A program made the translations under genes and the position numbers. From positions 1-49,649 of the forward strand of contig CAJVYQ010000035.1 of assembly GCA_913009825.1 (NCBI GenBank): a stretch of 49,649 bases of DNA. Direction: 5' to 3'. Positions within the stretch are counted from its first letter, which is position 1; each line of letters begins with the position of its first letter. This DNA is from an uncultured Deferribacteres bacterium. Lineage in GTDB: Bacteria > Zhuqueibacterota > JdFR-76 > DREG01. Below the pieces are notes generated by a model. The model did no database searches and was not told the origin of the DNA. It saw nothing but the letters and a program-made list of their open reading frames with translations. Below are positions 19,051 to 49,373 of the stretch, piece by piece.

Positions 19051-19148
19051 AAACGTTAGCTGTCCAATCAAAACAACGTTGCATTAATTGTAAATAGTTT
19101 TTATTTTATTTCTCGAAAGTGTTAAAAATAGCATTTTGGAGAAATAAT

Positions 19149-19766
19149 GTGAATTATATTGAATTCAAAGAGAAATTAAAATCTTTCCCGGTCTTTTCTT
19201 TACAGGAGATAAGAAAGATCGATCTTCGTTTTCACAGAAGAAGATTAAACGAATGGCAGGAAAAAGGGTATATAAAAAAAATTATCCGGGGTTACTATAT
19301 CTTTTCTGATTTAGCCCTGGATGATCATGTTTTATTTGAAATAGCCAACCGAATTTATTCGCCTTCTTATATCTCCTGTGAAATGGCGCTGTCTTATTAT
19401 TCTCTGATTCCGGAGAGCGTTTATCGCATCACATCTGTTTCAACGCGAAAAACATATCGTTTTTCAACATCGATTGCCGAATTCAGTTACAGAAGAATGA
19501 AACCGGCGTTGTTTTTTGGCTATCGTCTGGAAAAATATGGCGCTCGATTTTTCAAAATAGCCTATCCGGAAAAATCAATTCTGGACTATTTTTATTTTCA
19601 TTCGCAAATTAAATCGGCGATTGATTTTGAGAGCCTGCGACTGAATGCTTCTCTGTTTCGGGAAATAATCGATGGAGATAAACTGATGAATTATCTGGAA
19701 AAGATACAACAAAAAAGGCTGAAGAGAACTATTTATTCATTCATGGAATATATGCAAAATGCTTGA
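19149..19766 (+). CDS. AbiEi-like antitoxin/transcriptional regulator
   Basis: From the GTG at 19149 it is 205 residues. The N-terminal winged helix (about 1-60, with EIRKIDLRFHRRRLNEWQEK and IIRGYYIF) is the AbiEi_4-type domain, and the rest matches the AbiEi C-terminal region. In type IV toxin-antitoxin systems this protein represses the operon and counters the partner toxin. The GTG is chosen because GGAG lies 7 bases upstream; a GTG at 19119 is an alternative. It overlaps the AbiEii gene by 8 bases. The pair is visibly richer in A/T than the preceding genes, consistent with transfer. Confidence 0.82.
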   Translation: MNYIEFKEKLKSFPVFSLQEIRKIDLRFHRRRLNEWQEKGYIKKIIRGYYIFSDLALDDHVLFEIANRIYSPSYISCEMALSYYSLIPESVYRITSVSTRKTYRFSTSIAEFSYRRMKPALFFGYRLEKYGARFFKIAYPEKSILDYFYFHSQIKSAIDFESLRLNASLFREIIDGDKLMNYLEKIQQKRLKRTIYSFMEYMQNA

Positions 19767-20550
19767 TTTAGAGCAGATTGCAAGTTTCTATCCCGAAGTG
19801 ATCCATCCGTTCAAAAAAAATATACTTCGGGAATATCTGCAATTCAAATTACTGGAAATTATTTTCGATACGGAATACGCCCACAAATTAATTTTTATGG
19901 GCGGCGCCGCCATTCGGATTTTCCTTGGCAACAACCGTTTCTCGGAGGATCTGGATTTTGATAATTTTAATTTGCAAAAATCCGAGTTTATAAAATTATC
20001 AGACATTATTGAAAAAAGATTAGCCGGGGAAGGATATAAAATAGAGATAAGAAATATTTTTAAGGGCGCTTTTCATTCTTATATCGCCTTTAATAATGTA
20101 TTGTATGAACATAAATTATCTCCCCACAAAGAAGAAAAATTGGTCATTCGACTGGATTCAGAGGCTCAGAAAATCAATTATAAACCGGCACAATTCATTT
20201 TAAACAGATTTGATGTTTTTACCAGGATCAACGTAGTCCCTGAGAGTATCTTGTTATCTCAGAAGTTATTGGCCGTTCTTTTCAGAAAAAGACCGATGGG
20301 GCGGGATTTTTATGATGTTATTTTTTTATTGAGCAAAACAAAACCTGATTTGCTTTATTTGAAAAACAAAGGCAATATTGATTCACCGGAAGAATTAAAA
20401 AGCCTGATTTTAAAAAAAATTCAATCTTTAGACATGAAACGGTGGGTAAAAGATGTGGAACCGTTTTTAATTCAACCGAATGGCACAAAAAAAATATTGC
20501 TTTTTGAAGAATACATTAAGAATATTACATTTGATACAACAGACCAGTGA
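19759..20550 (+). CDS. AbiEii/AbiGii family nucleotidyltransferase toxin
   Basis: The 263-residue protein carries the toxin-family nucleotidyltransferase core: FMGGAAIRIFLGNNRFSEDL (47-66, metal-binding Asp64 and Asp66 in EDLDFD), a third acidic strand around VIRLDSEAQ, and the late KLLAVLFRKRPMGRDFYDV. Members add nucleotides to tRNA or other targets and halt growth, which can block phage. The Gly-Gly, Arg and Asp residues expected for activity are present. Translation is coupled to the upstream antitoxin (8-base overlap). Confidence 0.87.
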   Translation: MLDLEQIASFYPEVIHPFKKNILREYLQFKLLEIIFDTEYAHKLIFMGGAAIRIFLGNNRFSEDLDFDNFNLQKSEFIKLSDIIEKRLAGEGYKIEIRNIFKGAFHSYIAFNNVLYEHKLSPHKEEKLVIRLDSEAQKINYKPAQFILNRFDVFTRINVVPESILLSQKLLAVLFRKRPMGRDFYDVIFLLSKTKPDLLYLKNKGNIDSPEELKSLILKKIQSLDMKRWVKDVEPFLIQPNGTKKILLFEEYIKNITFDTTDQ

Positions 20551-26634: not shown

Positions 26635-27420
26635 ATGAAAAAATATTTTGTGCTTCTTTTTTTATTCGGCTTATTTCTTGCCCCGGCTTGCGGCAAAAAA
26701 GCGCCTGATGAATCTGTTTCAACAGATCCTTCCCTAACTATCTTTCATATGCCGGAGAGTATTGTTTTTTCTGATGAAAACCCGGTTTTTTTTATGGTCA
26801 GAGTATCTGATCCACAGGGATTAGGTGATATCCGTGAAGTCACTATCGAGATAAATCAGGATACTGTTCTCATCGATGCCGGACTAATGTGGGATGACGG
26901 ACAGAATGGTGATATTATTCCCGATAACGGCACGTACACCTATTTTGTCATCCCCAAAGAATCGGCTTTTTCAATCGGTTCAGCGGTGATTTCTTTTCAG
27001 GCAAAAGACCGGGAAAACCACCTGAGCCCGGTTGTGACGGACACCGTTTTGGTGGAGAGCCCGGTCATCAACAATCCGCCGGTAATCACGCAGGTTGCCG
27101 GTCCGGATACCCTTTCCAGAGCGCAGGGCGGAACCTACTTACTGACCGCTGCCGTAACCGATCCACAGGGTCTGGATGATATTCAGAAAGTAACCTTCAA
27201 CACTTTCAAACCTGATGGATCTCCCTCCAGCGGCAATCCTTTTTCCATGTATGATACCGGCAGCGATGGCGATGCGGCTGCGGGCGATGGAATTTACTCA
27301 TTTCAGTTTACCATCAGTCAATCTAACGTTACCGGCCAGTACCGGTTTGAATTTCAGGCTCAGGACAAACCGGGAGCGACAAGCAATGTTGCAGTTCATA
27401 TAATTACGGTGATTCAATGA
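26635..27420 (+). CDS. Lipoprotein with two Ig/cadherin-like repeats
   Basis: The 261-residue protein has a lipoprotein signal peptide with lipobox LAPAC (Cys about residue 20). Two homologous units follow, at about 45-135 and 150-260. Each has the pattern VSDPQGLGDIREVT or VTDPQGLDDIQKVT, then DDG or DTGSDGD, then an aromatic strand (YTYFVI, YSFQFT). These Asp-rich turns look calcium-binding, as in surface beta-sandwich domains. It ends in an ATGA overlap with the next gene, so it is likely the lipid-anchored partner of that exported beta-propeller. Family unnamed. Confidence 0.75.
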   Translation: MKKYFVLLFLFGLFLAPACGKKAPDESVSTDPSLTIFHMPESIVFSDENPVFFMVRVSDPQGLGDIREVTIEINQDTVLIDAGLMWDDGQNGDIIPDNGTYTYFVIPKESAFSIGSAVISFQAKDRENHLSPVVTDTVLVESPVINNPPVITQVAGPDTLSRAQGGTYLLTAAVTDPQGLDDIQKVTFNTFKPDGSPSSGNPFSMYDTGSDGDAAAGDGIYSFQFTISQSNVTGQYRFEFQAQDKPGATSNVAVHIITVIQ

Positions 27421-28856
27421 AAAAAATCGGCATTATTTTAGGACTGGGTTTTTTCCTTTTTTGGGGCAGCGGCCCGGCACAAATTCTCAATAAATCCTTT
27501 GCAGAACTGAATAAAAATCACAGTGTAACCATTTCCGGCAACAGTGTAACCGATGTGAACTATTATAATCAAAATATCTGGATTGCCACAGGCGGCGGCT
27601 TAAGCCGTACCGGAGATAACGGCGCCCGCTGGTTCAATTTTTCCGCCGCGGATGGCATCGGAAAAGGCGGTGTGTCCGCCATCACTTTTTATGGAGAATC
27701 CGTGTGGATTTCCACTGCCTTCGATACGCTGGTTCCGGAGGGAAATTTATCTGCCGGAGGTGGATTGAGTTATTCCGGTGATTTCGGAGAAACCTGGCAT
27801 CACATCAAACAGCCGGGTGTGACCAATGTGCAAAATGTAACGTTTGATATTGCCATCCTGGACTCGGTAATCTGGACGGCCAGTTGGGGAGGTGGCTTAA
27901 AAAAATCCGGAGACTGGGGACAAACCTGGGTGGATTCACCGCCCGATACATTTTTTTTCGATCCGTTAGGACGGCTCAATCACCGTGCATTTTCCGTCAT
28001 TGCTGCGGACAGCGTGTTGTGGGTTGGCACAGCCGGCGGCATAAATCGCAGTAAGGACGGCGGTGTAACGTGGGAAAACTTCGATCACCAAAATCAAATA
28101 AAACCGGTCTCCGGTAACTTTGTTGTTGCCATTGAACAGCAAAAATGGCGGGATAAAAATATTATCTGGGCGGCAACCATCGAGGCCGAAGATCAAAGTG
28201 AATTCCGTGCGGTCTCTTTTTCTGAAGATGACGGGGAAACATGGAATATTGTTTTAGCAGGGGAGTTTCCGCACAATTTCGCTTTTGATGATTCGATTGT
28301 TTATGTGCCCACAGATAACGCACTGTTCAAATCCATTGATTTCGGCGCGAATTGGGATGAGGTCACGCAAATTGTTGATAAAACCAGCGGCAACTTGTTG
28401 TTTACACACAACTTTTTTTCTGCCGCAGGGGCTCCCGGTCATATTCTGTGGGTTGGCACCGGCGATGGCCTGGTAAGAAGCGATGACGGCGGCACGAGCT
28501 GGACAATCTTCCGCACCTTTGAAACGTTGCGGGACGACAACAATGTGAGCGAAACTTACGCCTATCCCAATCCCTTTTCGCCCTTTCGCCACAATCAAAT
28601 CAACGACGAAGGACATGTCCGCTTTCATTATCGGGTGGATCAGGACGGCGCTGTCTCTGTGAAGGTTTTCGATTATAATATGGTATTGGTGGCGGAGGTG
28701 GAAAAAGAGCTTTATCGAACCGGAGGTGCCGAGTATGACGCTATCTGGAATGCAAAGAACGACTTTGGTGAAAAGGTTGCCAATGGAGTTTATTTTTATC
28801 GTGTCGATCTGCCCGGCGGAAAATCGGTGTGGGGCAAAGTGATTGTGATGGATTAG
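27417..28856 (+). CDS. Secreted beta-propeller protein with T9SS-type C-terminal domain
   Basis: The 479-residue protein has a signal peptide (1-21, WGSGPAQI). Repeated Asp-box/BNR-like units with (S/T)xDxGxTW follow: RTGDNGARW, YSGDFGETW, KSGDWGQTW, RSKDGGVTW, SEDDGETW, KSIDFGANW and RSDDGGTSW, giving about seven propeller blades. The C-terminus (about 388-479) carries AYPNPFSPF, then KVFDYN and AIWNAKNDFGEKVANGVYFY, the FlgD-like/T9SS sorting pattern. The likely fate is export across the outer membrane. The role is unknown; ligand or glycan binding is possible. It overlaps the lipoprotein gene by four bases. Confidence 0.85.
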   Translation: MKKIGIILGLGFFLFWGSGPAQILNKSFAELNKNHSVTISGNSVTDVNYYNQNIWIATGGGLSRTGDNGARWFNFSAADGIGKGGVSAITFYGESVWISTAFDTLVPEGNLSAGGGLSYSGDFGETWHHIKQPGVTNVQNVTFDIAILDSVIWTASWGGGLKKSGDWGQTWVDSPPDTFFFDPLGRLNHRAFSVIAADSVLWVGTAGGINRSKDGGVTWENFDHQNQIKPVSGNFVVAIEQQKWRDKNIIWAATIEAEDQSEFRAVSFSEDDGETWNIVLAGEFPHNFAFDDSIVYVPTDNALFKSIDFGANWDEVTQIVDKTSGNLLFTHNFFSAAGAPGHILWVGTGDGLVRSDDGGTSWTIFRTFETLRDDNNVSETYAYPNPFSPFRHNQINDEGHVRFHYRVDQDGAVSVKVFDYNMVLVAEVEKELYRTGGAEYDAIWNAKNDFGEKVANGVYFYRVDLPGGKSVWGKVIVMD

Positions 28857-28903
28857 AAGAACAGGAAAATAATTGGTAGCTTTTTTTGACGAGAAAGATA
28901 TTT

Positions 28904-29488
28904 ATGAATGTCAAAATAATGAAAATGGACGGTGACTGGAGTGCAGGGTTAGTATTAGATTGGCATATTGCACATAGTGAATTCCTTAGGTATGATCAAT
29001 ATGGCCACCCTGAATACAATACGCTGAGAACAGAAGTCGGTGAAGTTCTATACCAGTTAAAATATCGTTCTGATTTGACACAAATTGACACATTAGCAAA
29101 CACTATGGCTGATACAATAGCAGAGCCATTCCCAACAATATCATTCCTTGTTCCAATGCCACCGTCAAAACAACGGGCAACTCAACCACTCATATTATTG
29201 GCCAAAAAAGTTGCTGAATTACTCAATATTCCCTTCTTTGAAAATATTTTATTAAAAAATGAAACTACACCTCAAATGAAGGATATCAAGACAAAAGAAG
29301 AAAAAATCGATACGTTAATGCGATGCTTTCATATTAATGACGCAATTACCAATGATGGTCAGTTGGATGTTCTCATTATTGATGACCTATATTCCTCAGG
29401 AGCTTCATTGTCTGCGGCGACACAGACAATGAAGACTTATGGTAAAGTTAAAAATATTTATATGGCAGCGTTCACAAGGACGAAATAG
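28904..29488 (+). CDS. ComF-like phosphoribosyltransferase
   Basis: The 194-residue cytoplasmic protein is a type I phosphoribosyltransferase. The PRPP loop VLIIDDLYSSGAS is at residues 156-168 and an adjoining PMPPSKQRATQPL at 84-96 resembles ComF. The ComF zinc finger at the N-terminus is absent; instead there is about 40 residues with VLYQLKYR. Known relatives bind or make nucleotide substrates, but this one cannot be assigned. It is followed after 2 bases by a SLOG-like gene. Both genes are far richer in A/T than neighbours and look imported. The ATG at 28904 is used; a TTG-extended version from 28886 is less likely. Confidence 0.7.
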   Translation: MNVKIMKMDGDWSAGLVLDWHIAHSEFLRYDQYGHPEYNTLRTEVGEVLYQLKYRSDLTQIDTLANTMADTIAEPFPTISFLVPMPPSKQRATQPLILLAKKVAELLNIPFFENILLKNETTPQMKDIKTKEEKIDTLMRCFHINDAITNDGQLDVLIIDDLYSSGASLSAATQTMKTYGKVKNIYMAAFTRTK

Positions 29489-29490
29489 CT

Positions 29491-30111
29491 ATGAAGAGTA
29501 TATTTATCTCCGGTTCAATGCGTATCAAAAATATTAACAAGCTAGTAATTGATCGTATAGAGAATATTATTCGTGAGGAATTCACAATACTAGTCGGTGA
29601 TGCTGATGGAGTTGATGCGTCAATTCAACAAATATTAGCTAAAAAATCATACAAAAATGTGAAAGTATATTGCACAGGAAACCATCCCAGAAACAATATT
29701 GGGAAATGGGAATTAGTAACTGTTCAAACAAATTACAAGCCTAAAACGCGATTATATTTTACTGCCAAGGACTTAGAAATGGCAAAGCATTGTGACTATG
29801 GGCTGATGGTTTGGGATTCAAAGAGTACAGGAACGTTAAGTAATGTTTACGAGCTACTTATTACTCAAAAAACATCCGTTGTGTTTGTTAATAAATTTAA
29901 AAAATTCTTTAATATAAACAATTTTGAAAACTTTGAACATTTGGTTTCCACAATGAACGAGAGCGCATTTGAAAAAGCCAATAAAAAAATTGAACTAAAA
30001 GAAAAGATTGTCACCAATAGAAACAAGCAATTAAGCCTGTTCCCGGAAGCTAACAAAGTGCTTCACTTGACTCGCAACTCGTTGGCAAATTTTGGTGTAG
30101 ATTCAAGCTAG
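29491..30111 (+). CDS. SLOG/DUF2493-like Rossmannoid protein
   Basis: The 206-residue protein has a Rossmann-like N-terminal two thirds: SIFISGSMRI strand, VGDADGVDASI (residues 35-45, nucleotide-binding turn as in YspA/DprA-like SLOG proteins), a conserved CDYGLMVWDSKSTGTLSN (101-118) and a final VVFVNKF strand. A basic tail (150-206) may be a linker. SLOG proteins bind nucleotides or nucleotide-derived ligands and often serve in conflict or sensing systems. It is translationally paired with the phosphoribosyltransferase (2-base gap), suggesting that one makes what the other senses. That is inference. Confidence 0.65.
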   Translation: MKSIFISGSMRIKNINKLVIDRIENIIREEFTILVGDADGVDASIQQILAKKSYKNVKVYCTGNHPRNNIGKWELVTVQTNYKPKTRLYFTAKDLEMAKHCDYGLMVWDSKSTGTLSNVYELLITQKTSVVFVNKFKKFFNINNFENFEHLVSTMNESAFEKANKKIELKEKIVTNRNKQLSLFPEANKVLHLTRNSLANFGVDSS

Positions 30112-30240
30112 TAGCATTCAAAAAAGTTAATCGGCAGATTCACGGCAGGCAAGTGAGTTTGGTCTTTGATTTTTTAAATGAAGTGAAACCATCGTTTCAT
30201 TTCAGGAAGATGAAAAAATCCCGTATAAAGAAGTTTCGTG

Positions 30241-30471
30241 ATGAACAATAAATATAGCGAACATCTGCAAAAATTGGAGAAATTCAATCGGTGGGAAACG
30301 GAGTATCTCAAAAAGCTGTCGGTTGAGAAAAAAATACGGCAGTTTATTCAATTATTTCAGTTGCAAGAATACCTCCCGGAAGAAACGGTTCGGAGAGCGC
30401 ATGAAGAACATTTGGCAAATTTGATCCAAATTCAAAAAATGTTCCGGGGGATGAATGATTTTATTGATTAG
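30241..30471 (+). CDS. Small helical protein, unknown
   Basis: The 76-residue protein from the ATG at 30241 is mainly charged helix (KYSEHLQKLEKFNRWETEYL, then KKIRQFIQLFQLQEYL). It has no signal peptide, membrane segment or recognisable domain. A GTG at 30238 is an alternative. No strong Shine-Dalgarno is seen. It sits alone in the A/T-rich island after the SLOG gene and ends just before a long inverted repeat (30478-30562). Confidence 0.5.
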   Translation: MNNKYSEHLQKLEKFNRWETEYLKKLSVEKKIRQFIQLFQLQEYLPEETVRRAHEEHLANLIQIQKMFRGMNDFID

Positions 30472-30477
30472 CCCTAA

Positions 30478-30562
30478 AAACCCTCCCGCAGGTTATTATG
30501 AGTTGATTAATTTAAGCTTGAAAATTTGAAATTATTATCAGAAAAAACCTGCGGGAGGGTTT
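30478..30562. repeat. 17-bp inverted repeat with 51-base spacer
   Basis: AAACCCTCCCGCAGGTT (30478-30494) and AACCTGCGGGAGGGTTT (30546-30562) are exact inverted copies enclosing A/T-rich sequence. It lies 6 bases after the stop of the small helical gene. It may be a mobile-element end pair or a large terminator-like hairpin; the G/C-rich right arm is followed by only TTT. Confidence 0.75.
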
Positions 30563-30636
30563 AAATCAACAAGCTCACGAATAAAAAGTTAACAAAATAC
30601 GGACTTCGCAACCTTGTGCGAGGAATCTGTTCATAT

Positions 30637-30643
30637 AAGGAGG
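30637..30643 (+). promoter_or_regulatory. Perfect Shine-Dalgarno before a TTG start
   Basis: AAGGAGG lies 4 bases before the TTG at 30648 and fixes that start. Confidence 0.75.
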
Positions 30644-30647
30644 CCCT

Positions 30648-31616
30648 TTGAAAAAAACGATTTTACTGGTCGGAATTCTTTTCGGCATTTACAGCCAATC
30701 TGTTGTTGCCACAACGCCGGGCGGACAGGCAGGCGGGTTTTTGCGCATGGGACTGGGCGCCCGTGCGATCGCCATGGGCAACGCTTTCACCGGTCTGGCA
30801 AAAGACGGTTTTGCCGGTTATTACAACCCGGCCAGTCTGCCGTTTATGGATCATGCCGAGTTGTCTTTTTCGTTCGGTAATCTTTCACTGGATCGAAAAC
30901 ATAATTTCGTCGGCTTTTCTACATACATTCAGCCTGGAGCCAAGGACACGCTCAATGATTTTATGCGCGCCGGATTCGCGTTCGGTATCATCAACGCCGG
31001 TGTGGGCAATATCGATGGCAGGGACAGGAATGGCCAACATACCGGGATGTTTTCCAATACGGAGAATGCGTTCTATTTTTCATTTGCCATGAAACCGCTG
31101 CCCTTTCTGGCAGCAGGATTTTCGGCAAAAATTGTCAACAGCCGTTTCCCCACATTTTTGAATAATGACAAAACGCTAAGCGCATCCGGATTTGGCCTGG
31201 ATTTTGGTCTGTACGCCAAACCTCTGGAAAGGCTGAGCGTGGGGGTTGTGGTGAAGGATATTAAAACCAAATACACCTGGAATACGGAGGGTTTGTGGGA
31301 CAAAGCCTCCACCACCGTCAACTATTTTCCCACATTTCTGCGCATGGGCGCCGCCTATCAACTGCCATTCCGTTCCACAGTTACGGCCGATGCCGAATTC
31401 AATGAGGAGCAGGGCTGGCGTTTTTATTTTGGCAGCGAAATTCCTTACCGGGATTTGCTGGTGGTGCGCGCCGGTTATAATTCCGACCGGCTCACCTTTG
31501 GTTTTGGCGTTTTGTTTAAATTGTGGAAATACCGCGGCGAAGTGAGTTACGCATACGATAGCATCAGTATAACACCGGCGGCGGAACAATATTTTTCCTG
31601 GCGCATTTTATTTTAA
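30648..31616 (+). CDS. PorV/PorQ family outer-membrane protein
   Basis: The 322-residue protein starts with TTG and has a signal peptide (about 1-22). The family pattern GGFLRMGLGARAIAMGNAFT (27-46), followed by AGYYNPASL, is the hallmark of PorV/PorQ and related UPF0164 proteins. The barrel ends in a C-terminal Phe (SWRILF). In T9SS organisms PorV shuttles cargo from the translocon to the attachment complex. This neighbourhood encodes a T9SS-type cargo nearby, so a related role is possible, though no core T9SS gene is present here. A second homologue follows after 38 bases. Confidence 0.85.
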   Translation: MKKTILLVGILFGIYSQSVVATTPGGQAGGFLRMGLGARAIAMGNAFTGLAKDGFAGYYNPASLPFMDHAELSFSFGNLSLDRKHNFVGFSTYIQPGAKDTLNDFMRAGFAFGIINAGVGNIDGRDRNGQHTGMFSNTENAFYFSFAMKPLPFLAAGFSAKIVNSRFPTFLNNDKTLSASGFGLDFGLYAKPLERLSVGVVVKDIKTKYTWNTEGLWDKASTTVNYFPTFLRMGAAYQLPFRSTVTADAEFNEEQGWRFYFGSEIPYRDLLVVRAGYNSDRLTFGFGVLFKLWKYRGEVSYAYDSISITPAAEQYFSWRILF

Positions 31617-48709: not shown

Positions 48710-49018
48710 ATGATGTTAAATATTGAAACAAAAGAAACAATAAAAGCTCAATTAATTGGGCTTCTCGGTTCAGAAAAAGAGATAGAAAAAATATTCGTAT
48801 TCGGCTCTTTTGTTAATTCTGATAATCCTCAGGATGTTGATGTAGCAATATACCAAAATAGTAACGAATCATATTTAGCTTTAGCATTAAAATACAGGAA
48901 ATTAACCCGTGCTATTGCTGAAAGAATCCCTATCGATATTATTCCGATTAAATCAGATGCTCCAAAACACTCATTTCTTACTGAAATTGAATCCGGCGAA
49001 ATAATATATGAACGATGA
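48710..49018 (+). CDS. MNT-type nucleotidyltransferase (MntA-like)
   Basis: The 102-residue minimal nucleotidyltransferase has FVFGSFVNSD (29-38) and QDVDVAIYQ (41-49), the GS and DxD catalytic pattern of the MNT family. In HEPN/MNT toxin-antitoxin pairs such proteins AMPylate or otherwise silence the HEPN partner. A third acidic residue is in IPIDIIPIK. The second ATG at 48713 is an alternative start. It overlaps the HEPN gene by 11 bases. Confidence 0.85.
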   Translation: MMLNIETKETIKAQLIGLLGSEKEIEKIFVFGSFVNSDNPQDVDVAIYQNSNESYLALALKYRKLTRAIAERIPIDIIPIKSDAPKHSFLTEIESGEIIYER

Positions 49019-49373
49019 GACTAAAATCTGGTTGGAATATGCAATTGAAAATCTTCAGTCGGCAGAAGTGCTATTGAATAGTGAATTATATAATCCCTGT
49101 TTACAAAATGTTCAACAAAGTGTAGAGAAAACTTTAAAATCAATTTTGATTGAAAATAGCATCGGGCTTAAAAAAACTCATAGTATCAATGAATTAAAAA
49201 ACAATGGAATAACGGTCGATATTTCTGACGGTGAGTGTGATTTTTTAGATTCGATTTATCTTCCTTCCAAATATCCAATTGGAAGTGTACTTCCCTATTT
49301 TGAACCGATTTGTAGCCAATCTGTAGCAATAGCAAAACGTGTGTTAAAAATCGTACAGACTATTTTAAAATAA
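49008..49373 (+). CDS. HEPN-domain protein
   Basis: The 121-residue all-helical protein has the HEPN pattern: IWLEYAIENLQSAEVLL, CLQNVQQSVEKTLKSIL and LKKTHSINELKNNG. The RX4-6H RNase motif is not evident, so it may be of the non-nuclease HEPN type that pairs with MNT transferases. Translation overlaps the MNT gene. Together they form a likely type VII-like toxin-antitoxin module; which partner is toxic cannot be told from sequence. It lies beside a dispersed repeat copy. Confidence 0.8.
   Translation: MNDETKIWLEYAIENLQSAEVLLNSELYNPCLQNVQQSVEKTLKSILIENSIGLKKTHSINELKNNGITVDISDGECDFLDSIYLPSKYPIGSVLPYFEPICSQSVAIAKRVLKIVQTILK

What the first reader, a model, noticed from the sequence alone, without database searches (positions are those of the whole stretch)
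28904..30111. Two-gene phosphoribosyltransferase + SLOG-like module in an A/T-rich island
Seen: a ComF-like PRTase with PRPP loop (residues 156-168) lies 2 bases before a Rossmannoid protein with VGDADGVDASI, both in sequence visibly richer in A/T than flanking genes and with different codon choice. Known: SLOG-superfamily proteins bind nucleotides or derivatives and recur in bacterial conflict and sensing systems; PRTases make or salvage nucleotides. Inference: one partner synthesises or releases a nucleotide and the other senses it, possibly as an anti-phage or stress module. I know of no named two-component system that matches exactly.
Basis: partly seen in the sequence, partly recalled or inferred. 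Interest (0 to 1): 0.62.

Follow-up and report, generated by a model that had tools for sequence, protein, structure and literature searches.

The report
Compact PRTase–SLOG toxin–antitoxin-like defence module
Two adjacent genes that arrived by horizontal transfer look like a stripped-down relative of the ShosTA/PsyrTA phage-defence toxin–antitoxin systems: a sugar-phosphate-transferring enzyme that probably poisons the cell and a small nucleotide- or DNA-binding partner that probably holds it in check.

Summary
A 194-aa phosphoribosyltransferase (PRTase, 28904-29488) ends 2 nt before a 206-aa SLOG-fold protein (29491-30111). Both lie in an AT-rich insert (GC 36% and 33%) between two genes that are adjacent in close relatives. 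The pair is a real, conserved and mobile module. The PRTase directly precedes nearly every full-length SLOG relative, in Desulfobacterota, Proteobacteria, a Listeria plasmid and many plasmids and prophages. In one E. coli it sits in the P2 gpA-gpQ defence hotspot, where a ShosTA-type system was found. The PRTase belongs to the PsyrT/RqlH toxin-domain clade, not ComF (bootstrap 96). The SLOG protein's best solved-structure match is the antitoxin ShosA; in some lineages it carries a C-terminal addiction-antidote HTH. Four loci have a broken PRTase beside an intact SLOG; none shows the reverse. Best reading: a compact toxin–antitoxin, probably abortive-infection system related to ShosTA/PsyrTA, without the RecQ helicase and with a minimal SLOG in place of DprA. 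The PADLOC antitoxin models used here miss its second gene. Toxicity, neutralisation and phage defence are inferred.

The parts
28857..30647 (.). Insert between two genes that are adjacent in relatives; 1.79 kb here against roughly 30-170 nt in close relatives
   Evidence: Homologues of 27417-28856 and 30648-31616 are immediate neighbours in G001, G002, G005, G006, G007, G009 and others
28904..29488 (+). PRTase, 194 aa, predicted toxin/effector; stand-alone relative of the PsyrT/RqlH PRTase domain
   Evidence: PADLOC PsyrT 1.4e-14 and ShosT 3.6e-11; ML tree groups it with PsyrT against ComF at bootstrap 96; AF2 pLDDT 93.8; Foldseek HpComF and ShosT
29369..29407 (+). PRPP-binding loop VLIIDDLYSSGAS (residues 156-168)
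   Evidence: D160, D161 and G166 invariant in 17- and 25-row alignments
29491..30111 (+). SLOG-fold protein, 206 aa, predicted antitoxin/sensor
   Evidence: AF2 pLDDT 89.5; best PDB match ShosA 8zva, E 6e-5, then LOG and DprA; some homologues carry a C-terminal addiction-antidote HTH
29593..29625 (+). Ligand-pocket motif VGDADGVDASI (residues 35-45)
   Evidence: G36, D37, G40, D42 and Q46 invariant in 24 homologues; hhalign register with DprA SGLARGVDT, weak
29812..29844 (+). Second pocket motif WDSKSTGTLSN (residues 108-118)
   Evidence: W108, S112, G114 and N118 invariant
29923..30084 (+). C-terminal helical extension (residues 145-198), missing or divergent in most unpaired SLOG relatives; candidate PRTase-binding part (inference)
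   Evidence: AF2 secondary structure; most unpaired viral-contig relatives match the profile only to about position 127-152

Best explanation
A compact two-gene toxin–antitoxin-type defence module of the ShosTA/PsyrTA/RqlHI kind. The PRTase is the toxin: it most likely uses PRPP to alter or deplete the purine/nucleotide pool (as reported for ShosT), damaging DNA metabolism. The small SLOG protein is the antitoxin and probable sensor: it keeps the PRTase inactive or counters its damage until infection or DNA stress occupies its nucleotide/ssDNA pocket, which frees the toxin and stops the infected cell. Shown here: the gene pair, its conservation, mobility and insertion, the PRTase clade, the ShosA-like fold, the antidote-HTH fusions, the one-way decay, and placement of a homologue in a known defence hotspot. 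Inferred: toxicity, neutralisation, trigger and phage defence.
For: PADLOC PsyrT/ShosT hits for the window PRTase, and for 25/25 and 22/25 family members. ML tree: family monophyletic (97), and family plus PsyrT apart from ComF (96). RecQ-PRTase plus DprA operons in other genomes of the host's phylum hold the nearest non-family PRTases. SLOG model's top PDB match is ShosA; ShosT is among the PRTase matches. Pairing: 7 of 8 loci from the genome collection, 23 of 23 informative viral-contig loci with full-length SLOG, and 18 of 18 PRTase-first viral loci; none of 19 divergent, mostly short SLOGs; also plasmids of many genera. SLOG fused to a dnstrm_HI1420 addiction antidote (1e-23, 3e-26) in one lineage and to HTH_37 (5e-19) in another. 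38 loci with both intact, 4 with broken PRTase and intact SLOG (two by IS insertion), 0 the other way. Defence neighbours: CBASS, R-M, SIR2 with nucleotidyltransferase and HNH, AbiU; P2 gpA-gpQ hotspot in E. coli.
Against: No toxicity, neutralisation or phage data. The sequence link between this SLOG and DprA/ShosA is weak (hhalign P 0.011; the window protein hits no PADLOC antitoxin model); the fold match is moderate (TM about 0.5). The 4:0 decay asymmetry is small, and L003's stop could be an assembly error. Related SLOGs without a PRTase exist, so the SLOG fold is not tied to this role. [quoted passage not shown] Defence-neighbour counts were not compared with a background.
Confidence: 0.72

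Rival explanations
1. Nucleotide-signalling defence: on infection the PRTase makes an unusual nucleotide from PRPP, and the SLOG protein binds it and acts as the effector or switch.
For: SLOG domains do bind signal nucleotides (the ThsA SLOG 7uxs is among the fold matches); the pocket motifs are invariant; PRTase catalytic residues are intact.
Against: The SLOG has no effector domain; where it is fused in paired loci, the added domain is an antidote-type or XRE-type HTH. The named relatives are toxin-antitoxin systems. The one-way decay pattern fits a toxic PRTase.
Confidence: 0.13
2. Plasmid/prophage addiction module only: a toxin-antitoxin pair kept for stabilising mobile elements, with no dedicated anti-phage role.
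For: Common on plasmids: 98 records with SLOG relatives, 55 predicted conjugative. Antidote-HTH fusions suggest autoregulation.
Against: Several copies sit beside R-M, CBASS or Abi genes, and one in the P2 defence hotspot. The window copy has no mobile-element genes next to it.
Confidence: 0.1
3. Ordinary ComF/GntX-like competence or nucleotide-salvage enzyme with an unrelated neighbour.
For: RefSeq annotates homologues as 'ComF family protein'; H. pylori ComF is the top PRTase fold match; TIGR00201 1e-5.
Against: 25.4 bits against a 233.55-bit cut-off; the host has a separate, canonical ComF; the tree puts the gene outside ComF; strict pairing with SLOG.
Confidence: 0.05

Closest known systems
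ShosTA (E. coli P2-like prophages)
   Same: Two-gene PRTase plus SLOG-superfamily module; ShosA is the best structural match of the SLOG and ShosT is among the PRTase matches; a homologue occupies the gpA-gpQ hotspot in which a DprA+PRTase system was found
   Different: Antitoxin is a minimal SLOG, not a DprA-family protein by sequence; PRTase matches the ShosT profile only over positions 83-211 of 237
PsyrTA / RqlHI
   Same: PRTase domain in the same clade (bootstrap 96); PRTase gene followed by a SLOG-superfamily partner; PADLOC PsyrT matches all family members scanned
   Different: No RecQ helicase; partner is not DprA; far smaller (194+206 aa against about 670-780 plus 300-400 aa in L110-L112)
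ComFC/GntX phosphoribosyltransferases
   Same: PRTase fold and DD...G PRPP loop; [quoted passage not shown]
   Different: No N-terminal zinc finger, own N-terminal beta cap (GxWxxGxaLDxHt), paired with SLOG, outside the ComF clade
PRTase-effector retrons
   Same: PRTases proposed as effectors in some retrons (stated in PMC9122126)
   Different: No reverse transcriptase was seen among annotated neighbours; not specifically searched for

Membership tests
ShosTA | PRTase toxin of the ShosT family | tested here: inconclusive
   PADLOC ShosT 3.6e-11, positions 83-211 of 237; ShosT structures 8zvd/8zvb/8zvc match at E 3e-5 to 2e-4
ShosTA | DprA-family antitoxin (ShosA) | tested here: not met
   Window SLOG has no hit to ShosA or PsyrA; only 1 of 34 relatives hits ShosA (0.0023). 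Fold is nevertheless nearest to ShosA
ShosTA | Toxin neutralised by antitoxin; phage defence | not testable with these tools
   Needs expression and phage assays
PsyrTA / RqlHI | RecQ-type helicase fused to PRTase | tested here: not met
   194-aa PRTase only; upstream gene is a Sortilin/BNR-type protein
PsyrTA / RqlHI | PRTase domain of the PsyrT clade | tested here: met
   PsyrT 1.4e-14; ML tree bootstrap 96 for family plus PsyrT against ComF
PsyrTA / RqlHI | DprA-like partner | tested here: not met
   No significant hit for the window protein; weak PsyrA hits in 8 of 34 relatives, best 0.0039
SLOG superfamily | Rossmann-like SLOG fold with Gly-rich pocket motifs | tested here: met
   AF2 model matches ShosA, LOG, DprA, ThsA SLOG and TRPM proteins; conserved G8/S9, G36-D42, S112-N118
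DUF2493/YspA | Pfam DUF2493 match | tested here: not met
   Only Pfam hit is IF-2B at 0.058, below its cut-off
ComF family | TIGR00201 score above cut-off | tested here: not met
   25.4 bits against 233.55; ComF genes of this phylum also stay below that cut-off but score 91-143 bits
Type II toxin-antitoxin | Tight two-gene operon | tested here: met
   Gap between -4 and +14 nt in every pair
Type II toxin-antitoxin | Intact toxin never without intact antitoxin | tested here: inconclusive
   0 of 38 intact PRTases lack the SLOG; 4 broken PRTases beside intact SLOG; few events
Type II toxin-antitoxin | Antitoxin with DNA-binding autoregulatory domain | tested here: inconclusive
   Present in some homologues (HTH_37, dnstrm_HI1420), absent in the window copy
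Type II toxin-antitoxin | Toxicity and its neutralisation | not testable with these tools
   Needs expression assays

The most novel reading that the evidence does not exclude
The pair is a new, widely mobile defence family in which a stand-alone PRTase makes a nucleotide (or PRPP-derived product) that its SLOG partner directly binds, so that infection-driven changes in the nucleotide pool switch the module on: nucleotide-sensing control of a nucleotide-making toxin.
Probability: 0.15. Interest if true: 0.75.

Novelty: new variant of a known kind. Interest (0 to 1): 0.52.

Why it matters
It extends the ShosTA/PsyrTA group to a minimal 400-residue form spread over several phyla, conjugative plasmids and E. 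coli prophages, where it is annotated as 'ComF family protein' plus 'hypothetical protein' and missed by the PADLOC antitoxin models used here. Because the antitoxin is reduced to little more than a SLOG domain, it offers a clean way to ask what the SLOG part itself senses or does in these systems, which is obscured in DprA-type antitoxins. E. coli P2-prophage versions make it testable in laboratory strains at once.

Tried and rejected
Pfam, PHROGs, NCBIfam and PADLOC give nothing above threshold for the window SLOG itself; IF-2B (0.058) was rejected as sub-threshold. Single-sequence PDB searches found only chance matches, and profile searches did not reach ShosA or ShosT by sequence; only fold comparison did. 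hhalign of SLOG against DprA and PsyrA alignments was not convincing. No matches for the SLOG in annotated phage records; viral contigs with a single sequence also failed and needed the alignment. A search for flanking direct repeats marking the insertion gave only chance-length repeats, and promoter/terminator scans were at or below shuffle level. The paper with ShosTA biochemistry (PMC11961720) is not held, so its claims are cited through a review (PMC12593503). DefensePredictor (PMC13092281) lists a PRTase in a validated system, but the main text does not say which gene stands beside it, so I could not tell whether it is this family. The complex of the two proteins could not be predicted with the single-chain tool.

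Full report
OBSERVATION. The two ORFs are as described: PRTase 28904-29488 and SLOG-like 29491-30111, both +, 2 nt apart. Alignment of homologues supports the ATG at 28904. The genes are AT-rich (36% and 33% GC; GC3 32-33%) and have the worst codon-usage fit of 38 window genes. The PRPP loop and the VGDADGVD motif are invariant or nearly so among relatives.

IT IS AN INSERT. The upstream gene (27417-28856, a Sortilin/BNR-type protein) and the downstream gene (30648-31616) have homologues that are immediate neighbours in relatives G001, G002, G005, G006, G007, G009 and others, with roughly 30-170 nt between them in the close relatives against 1.79 kb here. The SLOG gene is in none of the 98 other genomes searched. 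In the phylum set no other genome has a stand-alone PRTase of this family; the only other strong hit is the PRTase domain of a RecQ fusion. The nearest relatives of the SLOG (74-79% identity over the alignment) are in Desulfobacterota MAGs. The pair was therefore probably acquired horizontally. I found no integrase or convincing flanking repeat.

THE PAIR IS A UNIT. Of eight relatives from the genome collection, seven have the PRTase directly upstream; the exception (L009) is a SLOG fragment. The fetched plasmid-collection relatives from Methylorubrum, Sagittula, Sinorhizobium, E. coli, Klebsiella, Polymorphobacter, Listeria, Agrobacterium, Xanthomonas and Acinetobacter, and a Neisseria gonorrhoeae record of chromosome size, have it too. 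In viral contigs, 24 loci have a full-length SLOG; one is at a contig edge, and the other 23 all have PRTase sequence immediately upstream. None of 19 more divergent, mostly shorter SLOGs does. Starting from the PRTase instead, 18 of 18 viral loci have the SLOG. The gap is -4 to +14 nt. In 35 distinct pairs the two proteins' distances correlate (rho 0.73, 0 of 2000 permutations), and dN/dS is 0.10-0.14.

WHAT THE PRTase IS. PADLOC's PsyrT and ShosT models match it (1.4e-14 and 3.6e-11), and PsyrT matches all 25 family members scanned. ComF matches at only 25 bits against a 233-bit cut-off; ComF genes of this phylum also stay below that cut-off but score 91-143 bits. The host has its own ComF elsewhere. 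In a maximum-likelihood tree of 35 family members, 9 PsyrT-type domains and 14 ComFs, family plus PsyrT separate from ComF at bootstrap 96, and the family is monophyletic at 97. Its nearest neighbours are PRTase domains of RecQ-PRTase fusions (L110, L130) that sit beside DprA-like genes. L130 shares the N-terminal G-x-W-x-x-G-x-A-L motif.

WHAT THE SLOG PROTEIN IS. Its AF2 model (pLDDT 89.5) has as its best PDB match ShosA (8zva, E 6e-5), then type-II LOG and DprA. The PRTase model (pLDDT 93.8) matches H. pylori ComF first, and ShosT structures with E 3e-5 to 2e-4. By sequence the link to DprA/ShosA is weak, so it is a distinct SLOG branch.

WHY TOXIN-ANTITOXIN. (a) In Agrobacterium and Xanthomonas the SLOG carries a C-terminal dnstrm_HI1420 addiction-antidote domain (1e-23, 3e-26); in Methylorubrum and Sinorhizobium a different HTH_37 domain (5e-19, 2e-19). 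(b) Decay is one-way: 38 loci have both genes intact; in 4 the PRTase is broken but the SLOG intact (IS869 in A. vitis, IS3 in E. hormaechei, a nonsense codon in a MAG, a lost 5' half in a viral contig); none has an intact PRTase with a broken SLOG; a few have both broken or lost. The numbers are small. (c) The named relatives are toxin-antitoxin systems: RqlH toxicity is mediated by its PRTase domain and constrained by the DprA-like RqlI (PMC4670107; [quoted passage not shown] a DprA+PRTase system protects against T7 and lambda (PMC9122126); ShosT is described as a PRTase/pyrophosphatase disturbing purine pools and ShosA as a DNA-binding antitoxin (PMC12593503, citing Pu et al. 2025).

WHY DEFENCE. 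Neighbours include CBASS genes, R-M systems, a SIR2 gene with a nucleotidyltransferase and an HNH gene, and an AbiU match. In viral contigs the pair adjoins integrase or terminase genes. In E. coli CFSAN061762 it lies between the P2-family portal gene and the replication endonuclease gene, which is the gpA-gpQ hotspot described in PMC9122126. Homologues occur in a few dozen of 5,426 E. coli genomes. I did not measure a background rate for defence neighbours.

MECHANISM. Most likely: the PRTase consumes PRPP or acts on nucleotides to poison the cell; the SLOG protein restrains it or counters its effect, and releases it when infection alters DNA or nucleotides in its pocket. The enzyme's substrate, the nature of the neutralisation and the trigger are all inferred.

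NOVELTY. The plan is known (ShosTA, PsyrTA, RqlHI). The form is not matched: no helicase, no DprA, and no curated model found for the second protein. I call it a new variant of a known kind. I cannot exclude that one of the PRTase-containing systems in recent screens (for example PMC13092281) is this family.

Noticed in passing
window 19119-20550 (+): A second AT-rich (33-35% GC) gene pair is a type IV AbiEi/AbiEii toxin-antitoxin system (PADLOC 1.5e-62 and 3.1e-93; Pfam AbiEii 7e-16).
   Followed up: partly
window 48710-49373 (+): A third AT-rich pair (31% GC) is a nucleotidyltransferase (MNT-like) plus HEPN protein, the MNT/HEPN toxin-antitoxin type.
   Followed up: partly
window 30451-30572: About 100-120 bp element with 20-nt inverted arms (core AACCCTCCCGCAGGTT) is dispersed in this genome: 19 further matches at 69-87% identity. 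Looks like a MITE/REP-type repeat inside the insert, downstream of the pair.
   Followed up: partly
L021, L023-L026; L053-L071: SLOG relatives without any PRTase nearby, in Mesorhizobium, Agrobacterium, Sphingobium and cyanobacterial plasmids and in viral contigs. In L021 and L026 a DUF2493 gene lies three genes upstream. Role unknown.
   Followed up: no
L059:4001-6160: 719-aa protein in a viral contig with the SLOG domain, a Gln_amidase (papain-fold) match and an HTH; L061 fuses the SLOG to a GNAT acetyltransferase.
   Followed up: no
L110, L111, L112, L130, L157-L163: RecQ-PRTase genes of the PsyrT/RqlH type in other genomes of the host's phylum; a DprA-like gene follows directly in L110, L111, L112 and L130 (partner not checked in L157-L163). 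Close comparison systems.
   Followed up: partly
L175:6870-8653: In the E. coli P2 hotspot the pair sits next to a RelA/SpoT-domain protein and a ParA-family gene, possibly another defence module.
   Followed up: no
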